Assembly (NCBI GenBank): GCA_024741835.1
Contig: JAENRP010000036.1
Coordinates: 1 to 64,000 of the forward strand
Source of the DNA: Diplocarpon mali
Taxonomy: Eukaryota > Ascomycota > Leotiomycetes > Helotiales > Drepanopezizaceae
Reading direction: 5' to 3'
Length of the DNA: 64,000 nucleotides
The notes beneath the pieces were generated by a model. The model searched no databases. It had not been told where the DNA came from and saw only the letters and a program-made list of their open reading frames with translations. Below, piece after piece: positions 19,189 to 19,354 of the stretch (the stretch's first letter is position 1; each line of letters starts with the position of its first letter). The position numbers were made by a program, and so were the translations under genes.

Positions 19189-19195
19189 AAAAAAA
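19189..19195 (-). terminator. Pol III T7 terminator of tRNA-Tyr
   Basis: Seven T on the minus strand, 13 nt after the discriminator base. This is the normal RNA polymerase III stop signal and argues that the transcription unit is, or recently was, functional. Confidence 0.8.
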
Positions 19196-19208: not shown

Positions 19209-19354
19209 TCCCTCAGGCGCGAGTCGAACCTATGATGGCTATCAGTATTTGTCTGAGAGAGAATTTAGCTGATCATGGTGAGACGTACGCGCGACATTCG
19301 GATTATCTACAACAGTTACAGTCCGACGCCATAAACCAACTAGACGACCGAGGG
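19209..19354 (-). tRNA. tRNA-Tyr (anticodon GTA) with an anticodon-loop intron and an extra 59-nt insertion in the T arm
   Basis: Read 5' to 3' on the minus strand from 19354: acceptor CCCTCGG (19354-19348) pairs with CTGAGGG (19216-19210), discriminator A at 19209. The D arm has A14, G15, G18G19 and A21. The anticodon stem TCGGA/TCCGA encloses CTGTAA, with GTA at 19319-19317, then a 12-nt canonical intron (19315-19304) after position 37. The variable loop is ATGTC (C48 pairs with G15). The T stem GCGCG/CGCGC with loop TTCGACT is perfect only if 19288-19230 is removed; that insert begins GTACGT and ends ATAG. A T7 Pol III terminator follows at 19195-19189. No CCA is encoded, as normal for eukaryotes. 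Functional gene with an extra intron, or an interrupted pseudogene: undecided. Confidence 0.85.
19230..19288 (-). other. mRNA-type (GT-AG) intron-like insert in the tRNA-Tyr T arm
   Basis: 59 nt with 5' end GTACGT, a CTRAY-type branch candidate TACTGAT about 12 nt before the 3' end, and 3' end CATCATAG. Both length and donor match protein-gene introns in this window (GTACGT donors also at 28746 on the plus strand and 38244 on the minus strand). The insertion point is after the fourth base of the 5' T-stem strand (position 52/53, one-base ambiguity). Confidence 0.6.

What the first reader, a model, noticed from the sequence alone, without database searches (positions are those of the whole stretch)
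19209..19354. tRNA-Tyr gene carrying an mRNA-type (GT-AG) intron-like insert in the T arm
Seen: a complete tRNA-Tyr(GTA) with the usual 12-nt anticodon intron, intact conserved bases and a T7 Pol III terminator, interrupted at position 52/53 by exactly 59 nt that begin GTACGT, contain TACTGAT 12 nt before the end, and end CATCATAG. Removing them restores a perfect 5-bp T stem and TTCGACT loop. Known: nuclear tRNA introns normally sit only after position 37 and are cut by the tRNA endonuclease; mRNA-type introns have been described in U6 snRNA genes of some fungi, so a Pol III transcript can carry one. Inference: this is a spliceosomal-type intron in a tRNA gene, which would be very unusual. 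Alternatives are insertional inactivation or endonuclease cleavage at a bulge-helix-bulge.
Basis: partly seen in the sequence, partly recalled or inferred. Interest (0 to 1): 0.88.

Follow-up and report, generated by a model that had tools for sequence, protein, structure and literature searches.

The report
mRNA-type introns inside fungal tRNA genes
In the apple-blotch fungus, many tRNA genes, including each tyrosine tRNA gene found, are interrupted by short introns of the kind normally cut out of messenger RNAs, so making these basic translation molecules appears to need the mRNA-splicing machine as well as the usual tRNA-splicing enzyme.

Summary
In detail: a minus-strand tRNA-Tyr(GTA) at 19354-19209 has a 12-nt anticodon intron plus a 59-nt GT-AG insert in the T stem (19288-19230). 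It is not alone. The genome is Diplocarpon mali/coronariae (Helotiales). All three tRNA-Tyr genes found have an insert at this site; no insert-free copy was found. At least 21 D. mali tRNA genes carry an off-site GT-AG insert, at 11 different positions, including both His, both elongator-Met and all four Gly-GCC genes found. A second, probably helotialean fungus, in contigs mis-binned in a bacterial MAG, has three more, one at the same Tyr site. All 24 inserts look spliceosomal: GT...AG, mostly GTAAGT-like starts, a branch motif 9-14 nt from the end, 48-92 nt long. Removing them gives the right tRNA by ARAGORN in 23 of 24. In 16 of 24, uninterrupted relatives set the boundary, GT-AG each time. 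Gly-GCC and His copies are identical in mature sequence while their introns have diverged. The same genome's one strong U6 hit has a similar intron. Best reading: spliceosomal introns in functional tRNA genes, removed besides the endonuclease-type intron. No RNA evidence was available. I found no published report.

The parts
19209..19354 (-). tRNA-Tyr(GTA) gene, 146 bp, read from 19354 to 19209
   Evidence: ARAGORN calls tRNA-Tyr(gta) only after the T-arm insert is removed; Rfam tRNA 24.1 bits unspliced
19316..19354 (-). 5' exon: acceptor 5' strand, D arm, anticodon GTA up to position 37
   Evidence: mature exons 74/74 identical to the tRNA-Tyr of the second fungus
19304..19315 (-). 12-nt canonical intron at 37/38, presumably removed by the tRNA splicing endonuclease (boundary may slip by one base)
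   Evidence: ARAGORN lists a 12-nt intron; not GT-AG
19289..19303 (-). middle exon: position 38, anticodon 3' stem, variable loop, first 4 bases of T stem (ends GCGC)
19230..19288 (-). 59-nt mRNA-type (GT-AG) intron between positions 52 and 53
   Evidence: GTACGT...TACTGAT...CATCATAG
19241..19247 (-). branch-site-like TACTGAT; putative branch A at 19242, 12 nt before the intron end
19209..19229 (-). 3' exon: last base of the T-stem 5' strand, T loop TTCGACT, T-stem 3' strand, acceptor 3' strand, discriminator A. The B box abuts the intron
19189..19195 (-). T7 run, Pol III terminator-like, 13 nt downstream of the gene

Best explanation
The insert is a U2-type spliceosomal intron inside a functional nuclear tRNA-Tyr gene. 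The likely course: the gene is transcribed, most likely by RNA polymerase III, since a T-run terminator follows. The spliceosome recognises GTACGT, the branch site TACTGAT and CATAG, and removes the 59 nt, which lets the T arm form. Separately, the tRNA endonuclease (Sen complex) removes the 12-nt anticodon intron and ligase joins the halves. The gene is one of at least 21 tRNA genes in Diplocarpon mali with off-site GT-AG introns. In this census each gene found for Tyr, His and elongator Met has one, so the fungus should depend on spliceosomal processing for these tRNAs. Shown: sequence anatomy, boundaries, restored cloverleaves, conservation, no insert-free copies in the census. Inferred: transcription by Pol III, excision, and the spliceosome as the agent.
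For: (1) 24 of 24 off-site introns (21 D. mali, 3 second fungus) are GT...AG; G5 in 23, T6 in 21, exact GTAAGT in 12; median 51 nt, range 48-92. (2) CTRAY with the branch A near the end in 21 of 24, against 4.8 +/- 1.9 in 1000 interior shuffles (maximum 14); these 21 lie 9-14 nt from the end; the other 3 have CTCAC, TTGAC or TTAAC. (3) In 16 of 24 genes, uninterrupted relatives set the boundary with no splice-site rule; in 16 of 16 exactly one of the 1-6 equally good splits is GT...AG. (4) ARAGORN gives the right isotype and anticodon over the gene in 23 of 24 after removal, and 8 of 24 calls before, 3 of them wrong isotypes and the rest with wrong ends or intron. (5) No spliced-form Tyr T arm at up to 3 mismatches; the three perfect Tyr D-arm matches are the interrupted genes. 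(6) The four Gly-GCC genes are 69/69 identical in mature parts while their introns are 55-59% alike, unrelated introns 55%. (7) Tyr of a second fungus: 74/74 identical mature exons, intron at the same site. (8) The one U6 hit over cut-off holds an insert GTGAGT...GCTAATGATATCCAG. (9) Control: 1 of 63 anticodon introns listed by ARAGORN is GT...AG, 10 of 63 hold YTNAY 7-16 nt from the end, median 19 nt. (10) A T4-or-longer run starts within 25 nt downstream in 21 of 24, against 9% of random points in the fetched flanks.
Against: No RNA evidence. 13 of 24 introns lie in the A-box range (positions 8-19) and one splits the B box, so Pol III transcription from normal intragenic promoters is unexplained there. 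tRNA-Tyr C52 has A53 opposite C61 after GT-AG excision and ARAGORN still rejects it; that copy may be decayed or cut one base away. The census is incomplete, and a few odd loci (L061, L114, L125, L126, L131) were left unresolved, so off-site inserts without GT-AG could have been passed over. The boundary test starts from gene 5' ends that I assigned, for Ser-GCT with GT-AG in mind, and some references are isoacceptors with modest match (24/34 for Leu-TAG, 24/30 for Ser-GCT). With a one-base slip three of 24 genes could form the 4-bp BHB helix. The mRNA intron consensus was sampled from four junctions in two window genes, one doubtful.
Confidence: 0.92

Rival explanations
1. The inserts are non-canonical tRNA introns removed by the tRNA splicing endonuclease at bulge-helix-bulge structures, as in Crenarchaeota, nucleomorphs and Cyanidioschyzon.
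For: Such introns exist at scattered positions in archaea and some algae (PMC4090602, section 5 read). Ala C75 shows 4/4 pairs in the place of the central BHB helix, and the two His genes do if the boundary slips by one base.
Against: 1 of 24 has the 4-bp central helix at the annotated site, 3 of 24 with a slip of one. The shared features are instead a 5' splice site, branch site and AG, which the endonuclease is not known to read. The anticodon introns of the same loci lack them (1 of 63 GT...AG).
Confidence: 0.04
2. Insertional inactivation: the interrupted genes are pseudogenes and other copies make the tRNAs.
For: Some isotypes do have insert-free copies (Ala L028/L029, Glu-TTC L026, Gly-TCC L109, Leu-CAG L027). 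PMC4090602 says eukaryotic D- and T-arm insertions are usually taken to mark pseudogenes.
Against: No insert-free Tyr, His, elongator Met or Gly-GCC gene was found. Gly-GCC and His copies are identical in mature parts, and one Tyr is identical between fungi, while introns diverged. Tyr C55 shows paired changes in the anticodon stem. ARAGORN accepts 23 of 24 spliced products.
Confidence: 0.02
3. Assembly or sequencing artefact.
For: The assembly is in 676 contigs.
Against: 21 loci at 11 positions all have splice-site grammar, and a separate assembly of another fungus shares the Tyr site.
Confidence: 0.005
4. The introns are spliceosomal, but the interrupted tRNA genes, or at least those with split A or B boxes, are transcribed by RNA polymerase II, with RNase P and tRNase Z freeing the tRNA after splicing. 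(A rival on the transcription step only.)
For: The A-box score drops in the unspliced gene in 12 of the 13 A-box-range cases and the B box is split in Met C27; spliceosome recruitment is normally tied to Pol II.
Against: T4-or-longer runs start within 25 nt downstream in 21 of 24, against 9% at random; the B-box pattern is intact in 22 of 24; S. pombe U6 shows that a Pol III transcript can be spliced (PMC8917221, passages read).
Confidence: 0.15

Closest known systems
mRNA-type introns in U6 snRNA genes (fission yeast and some other fungi)
   Same: Short GT-AG intron with branch site in a Pol III gene, removed by the spliceosome (PMC8917221, passages read, citing Tani and Ohshima 1989 and 1991, which I did not read). 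D. mali U6 itself appears to have one.
   Different: U6 is part of the spliceosome and a single gene; here it is at least 21 tRNA genes of many isotypes, most with a second, endonuclease-type intron in the same precursor.
Canonical nuclear tRNA introns (Sen endonuclease)
   Same: Intron in a nuclear tRNA gene; most of the 24 genes also carry one at 37/38.
   Different: Position off 37/38, GT-AG with branch site, 48-92 nt against a median of 19 nt.
Non-canonical (BHB) tRNA introns of archaea, nucleomorphs and Cyanidioschyzon
   Same: Introns at scattered tRNA positions including D and T arms, several per gene (PMC4090602).
   Different: No 4-bp BHB helix at the annotated site in 23 of 24; spliceosomal signals instead; host is a filamentous fungus.
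Spliceosomal introns in nuclear rRNA genes of lichen and other ascomycete fungi (recalled, no call)
   Same: Spliceosomal-type introns in a non-coding gene not transcribed by Pol II.
   Different: tRNA, probably Pol III; precise excision needed for a roughly 75-nt folded RNA.
Introner elements (recalled, no call)
   Same: Many short introns gained in one lineage.
   Different: No similarity among introns of different tRNAs; only Tyr introns match each other.

Membership tests
U2-type spliceosomal intron | GT at the 5' end and AG at the 3' end at the exact excision boundary | tested here: met
   24 of 24; boundary set by relatives in 16 of 24, GT-AG in all 16
U2-type spliceosomal intron | Extended 5' splice site like GTRNGT | tested here: met
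   GTNNGT in 20 of 24, GTRNGT in 17, GTAAGT in 12; this gene GTACGT
U2-type spliceosomal intron | Branch site (CTRAY or YTNAY) shortly before the 3' end | tested here: met
   CTRAY 21 of 24 against 4.8 expected by shuffling; YTNAY 7-16 nt from the end in 24 of 24
U2-type spliceosomal intron | Removal by the spliceosome through a lariat | not testable with these tools
   No RNA data
Canonical nuclear tRNA intron | Located at 37/38 | tested here: not met
   Insert at 52/53; D. mali genes show 11 positions in all, none 37/38
Non-canonical BHB tRNA intron | 4-bp central helix between two 3-nt bulges at the splice sites | tested here: not met
   This gene 2 of 4 pairs (3 with a slip); 1 of 24 genes has 4 of 4 at the annotated site, 3 with a slip
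mRNA-type intron in a Pol III gene (U6 kind) | Pol III terminator and internal promoter elements around the intron | tested here: inconclusive
   T4-or-longer run within 25 nt in 21 of 24 (9% at random); B-box pattern in 22 of 24; A-box range split in 13 of 24
Group I or II self-splicing intron | Catalytic RNA core (hundreds of nt) | tested here: not met
   Length 48-92 nt; no Rfam match at gathering score in the window
Introner element | Near-identical copies at many sites | tested here: not met
   BLAST among the 24 introns (E up to 0.01) lists only Tyr-Tyr matches
Functional tRNA gene | Cloverleaf and identity after excision | tested here: met
   This gene and 22 others of 24 by ARAGORN; Tyr C52 fails

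The most novel reading that the evidence does not exclude
In a lineage of filamentous fungi the spliceosome has become an obligatory tRNA-maturation machine. Decoding of Tyr, His and elongator Met codons depends on it, many pre-tRNAs need two unrelated splicing systems, and tRNA genes have gained introns repeatedly, even inside the A and B boxes of their own promoters, so transcription of these genes must tolerate a split promoter or use another one.
Probability: 0.8. Interest if true: 0.95.

Novelty: new variant of a known kind. Interest (0 to 1): 0.92.

Why it matters
Nuclear tRNA introns are described as endonuclease substrates at 37/38. The tRNAscan-SE 2.0 paper says eukaryotic tRNA genes are limited to one intron (passages read), and a review treats D- and T-arm insertions as mostly pseudogene marks. 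If these introns are spliced: tRNA supply is tied to spliceosome activity; tRNA finders miss or mislabel such genes (ARAGORN missed 16 of 24 outright and gave 3 a wrong isotype); the spliceosome can act on very small, probably uncapped Pol III transcripts, with as little as 4 nt of mature tRNA before the intron (plus any leader); and there is a natural set of intron gains with uninterrupted relatives in the same genome. It also makes testable how a gene with a split A or B box is transcribed.

Tried and rejected
BHB excision: checked geometrically; 1 of 24 at the annotated site, 3 of 24 with a one-base slip. Pseudogene reading: rejected from conservation and the lack of insert-free copies. Introner-like copies: no similarity except among Tyr introns. 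Self-splicing introns: too short. An A box rebuilt by the intron: the best score in the unspliced gene is below the spliced A box in 12 of 13 A-box-range cases (the scoring register is off by one for the two Met genes and for one of 27 training genes). Exact Tyr D-arm pattern in viral contigs: no match. The family search RF00005 alone is a poor census: 63 of 2443 candidates scored. T-arm patterns gave 83, 64, 83 and 52 rows, many of them chance: the reversed-pattern controls gave 62, 54, 98 and 100. I kept rows whose three stem positions pair; a recount found 81 such rows (35, 11, 11, 24), two of which I had overlooked, then read and found not tRNA-like. In G001 I fetched 6 of the 23 T-arm rows and 9 of the 33 tRNA matches. 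Literature: ten answered searches listed no report of spliceosomal introns in tRNA genes; the library holds only open-licence PMC papers and no preprints. Loci left out of the 24: L061 (Lys-CTT-like, no 5' exon found), L131 (degenerate, Ala-like), L125 (Ile with a long insert at or near the canonical site), L126 and L114 (not resolved).

Full report
WHAT IS THERE. The gene lies on the minus strand, 19354 to 19209. It reads as a tRNA-Tyr(GTA): acceptor CCCTCGG/CTGAGGG, D arm, anticodon GTA, a 12-nt insert after position 37, a variable loop, the first four bases of the T stem (GCGC), then 59 nt GTACGT...TACTGATAGCCATCATAG, then G TTCGACT CGCGC and the acceptor end. A run of seven T follows 13 nt downstream. 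ARAGORN and Rfam at its cut-off do not see it; with the 59 nt removed ARAGORN calls tRNA-Tyr(gta) with a 12-nt intron.

WHERE IT COMES FROM. The window lies in contig C36 (229,488 bp) of a 49.4-Mb, 676-contig genome. A window channel protein is recorded from Diplocarpon mali on a contig of exactly that length, and a long window reading frame is 100% identical to a Diplocarpon coronariae protein over the 701 residues searched. NCBI places D. coronariae in Helotiales, Drepanopezizaceae; that it causes apple blotch is recalled.

THE tRNA-Tyr GENES FOUND ARE ALL INTERRUPTED. A DNA search found two relatives, and a D-arm pattern found three perfect matches, the same three genes; its four other rows, with three mismatches, look unlike tRNA by eye. 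The three have a GT...AG insert at 52/53 of 59, 65 and 80 nt. The spliced form of the T arm plus acceptor end occurs nowhere at up to 3 mismatches. Tyr C52 has A53, which would not pair with C61 after GT-AG excision, and ARAGORN rejects it even when spliced; it may be decaying. A scan of prokaryote genome contigs with the Tyr D-arm pattern gave one match, in a record labelled Deltaproteobacteria MAG CPC1. That contig is fungal: an amidase on it is 72% identical to named Rutstroemia and Diplocarpon rosae proteins, with no close named match, so I take it as a probably helotialean fungus of another genus. Its tRNA-Tyr is identical to the D. mali C36 gene in all 74 mature positions and has a 92-nt insert at the same site beginning GTAAGT. 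So the T-arm intron is shared by two fungi, or was gained twice at one site.

MANY OTHER tRNA GENES ARE INTERRUPTED ELSEWHERE. The Rfam tRNA search (49 matches, 45 over cut-off; 63 of 2443 candidates scored) and four T-arm patterns (83, 64, 83 and 52 rows) led to further tRNA loci. Of the pattern rows, 81 pair at three stem positions; all 81 were read, and a good part of them are chance. Off-site GT-AG inserts were read in: Gly-GCC four times (13/14 three times, 8/9 once), Gly-CCC (9/10), Gly-TCC (12/13), Glu-TTC (12/13), Ala-AGC (15/16), Lys-TTT (8/9), Ser-TGA (9/10), Ser-GCT (5/6), Leu-CAG and Leu-TAG (20/20a), Leu-TAA (48/49), His-GTG twice (12/13), elongator Met twice (46/47 and 55/56; a 30-base 5' pattern at up to 3 mismatches gave exactly these two rows), and Tyr three times: 21 genes at 11 positions. 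In the second fungus: Tyr (52/53), Gln-CTG (4/5) and Glu-CTC (16/17), three genes, among about nine loci there that I took for fungal tRNA genes by eye. These are lower bounds: T stems with two or more A-T pairs or G-U pairs, and T-loop introns, escape the patterns. By my own rough tally I read about 75 tRNA loci in D. mali. The copies found are all interrupted for Tyr (3), His (2), elongator Met (2) and Gly-GCC (4). Tyr, His and elongator Met normally have one anticodon each (established knowledge), so no other tRNA could stand in. Insert-free copies do exist for Ala, Glu-TTC, Gly-TCC and Leu-CAG.

THE BOUNDARIES ARE GT-AG WITHOUT ASSUMING IT. For 16 of the 24 genes an uninterrupted stretch exists in a relative: a paralog, an isoacceptor, the other fungus, or a sister copy interrupted elsewhere. 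I searched all splits for the best match to that relative with no splice-site rule. In 16 of 16, exactly one of the one to six equally good splits was GT...AG, the one I had assigned. Examples: Ala C75 matches Ala L028 and L029 at 36/36; Glu-TTC C64 matches L026 at 36/36; each elongator-Met gene is the empty site of the other. Limits: the gene 5' ends were assigned by me beforehand, for Ser-GCT with GT-AG in mind, and some references match modestly (24/34 for Leu-TAG, 24/30 for Ser-GCT). The remaining 8 (Tyr four times, His twice, Gly-CCC, Leu-TAA) rest on the cloverleaf. ARAGORN gives the right isotype in 23 of 24 after removal; before removal it reports 8 of 24, 3 with a wrong isotype and 5 with the right isotype but wrong ends or a misplaced long intron.

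SPLICE SIGNALS. In 24 of 24 the ends are GT and AG; position 5 is G in 23 and position 6 is T in 21; 12 begin GTAAGT; lengths 48-92, median 51. A CTRAY motif with the branch A 6-30 nt from the end is present in 21 of 24 (observed range 9-14 nt), against 4.8 +/- 1.9 in 1000 interior dinucleotide shuffles, maximum 14; the other three have CTCAC, TTGAC and TTAAC. Of 63 anticodon introns listed by ARAGORN from both fungi (at least one listed twice, boundaries as ARAGORN sets them), one is GT...AG, 10 hold YTNAY in that place, and the median length is 19 nt. Four mRNA intron junctions from two window genes begin GTGAGT or GTAAGT and one has TACTAAT; the sample is small, 55-271 nt long, and the 271-nt model is doubtful.

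FUNCTION OF THE INTERRUPTED GENES. The four Gly-GCC genes are 69/69 identical in mature sequence, while their introns are 55-59% alike, the level of unrelated introns (55%, sd 5%, 181 pairs); the two His genes are 71/71 alike with introns 57% alike. The three D. mali Tyr genes differ at 3 to 7 of 74 mature positions; C55 differs from C36 by changes on both sides of the anticodon stem that keep the pairs. Disabled genes would not be expected to show this pattern. T4-or-longer runs start within 25 nt downstream in 21 of 24 (Ala C75 at 53; the two His loci were fetched with only about 30 nt downstream), against 9% of random points in the fetched flanks.

A PRECEDENT IN THE SAME GENOME. The one U6 hit over cut-off (5 matches; 47 of 3126 candidates scored) carries an insert that I place as AGCATGGC|GTGAGT...GCTAATGATATCCAG|CCCTGC, 51 nt; Rfam's alignment sets the insert in the same region with slightly different ends. 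In S. [quoted passage not shown] So this fungus very likely already splices one Pol III transcript with its spliceosome.

ALTERNATIVES. A bulge-helix-bulge central helix is present at the annotated site in 1 of 24, and in 3 of 24 with a one-base slip. Insertional inactivation is opposed by conservation and missing intact copies. Assembly error is opposed by 21 loci and a second species. Self-splicing introns are too long to fit.

WHAT IS NOT EXPLAINED. 13 of 24 introns lie within the A-box range (positions 8-19), and in 12 of those 13 the best A-box-like score in the unspliced gene is below that of the spliced one; Met C27 has its B box split and Tyr C52 has a B-box mismatch. How such genes are transcribed is open: a tolerant TFIIIC, upstream elements, or Pol II for some. 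The Tyr introns also share a block near the 3' end, 30 nt identical between D. mali C55 and the second fungus, predicted to fold as a hairpin with the branch-site CTAA in its loop; its role is unknown.

LITERATURE. A review (PMC4090602; passages and section 5 read) names, in that section, nucleomorphs and a red alga for non-canonical eukaryotic tRNA introns, holds no word beginning spliceosom in its main text, and says D- and T-arm insertions are supposed to be pseudogene marks. The tRNAscan-SE 2.0 paper (PMC8450103, passages read) treats non-canonical introns as archaeal and says eukaryotic tRNA genes are limited to one intron. Ten answered searches of open PMC papers listed no report of spliceosomal introns in tRNA genes. 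Subscription journals and preprints were not searched.

VERDICT. The finding is real and larger than first described: mRNA-type introns in many tRNA genes of a helotialean fungus, very probably functional. The machine is known and a Pol III precedent is known (U6), so I class it as a new variant of a known kind, with very high interest.

Noticed in passing
L149:1501-1653 (G000:C67:136807-136959, +): The one U6 snRNA hit over Rfam's cut-off in this genome has a 51-nt mRNA-type insert, GTGAGT...GCTAATGATATCCAG, in the conserved core.
   Followed up: partly
3' part of the tRNA-Tyr introns (L002, L003, L132; weaker in window 19230-19260): A 30-nt block is identical between the Tyr introns of D. 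mali C55 and the second fungus, and is predicted to fold into a hairpin with the branch-site CTAA in the loop.
   Followed up: partly
13 of the 24 interrupted tRNA genes, and L142: Introns lie in the A-box range (13 genes) or split the B box (Met C27), so the intragenic Pol III promoter is itself interrupted.
   Followed up: partly
L028, L029, L059, L131, just after tRNA-Ala: Each tRNA-Ala(AGC)-like gene is followed about 10-20 nt downstream by a second T-arm-like stem-loop around TCGGTTCNATTCCGA or a variant.
   Followed up: no
L132:5943-6608 (-): ORF with repeated RLGIGGTSTFxPIRHNKR units, like a fungal mating-pheromone precursor (resemblance recalled), close to the tRNA-Tyr gene.
   Followed up: no
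L132 and G001 (NYXK01 MAG): A genome labelled Deltaproteobacteria in the prokaryote collection holds fungal contigs with fungal tRNA genes.
   Followed up: partly
L114 (G000:C130:4332-4572): An isolated 3' half of a tRNA-Arg(ACG)-like gene in A+T-rich sequence.
   Followed up: no
L061 (G000:C13:15695-16083, -): A Lys(CTT)-like tRNA body whose 5' acceptor strand was not found upstream; possibly another interrupted gene or a pseudogene.
   Followed up: partly
G000 anticodon introns: Many tRNA genes seen here carry a canonical anticodon intron, including isotypes such as Gly, Ala, Glu and Asp; others (Ile-AAT, initiator Met, Ser-AGA) do not.
   Followed up: no
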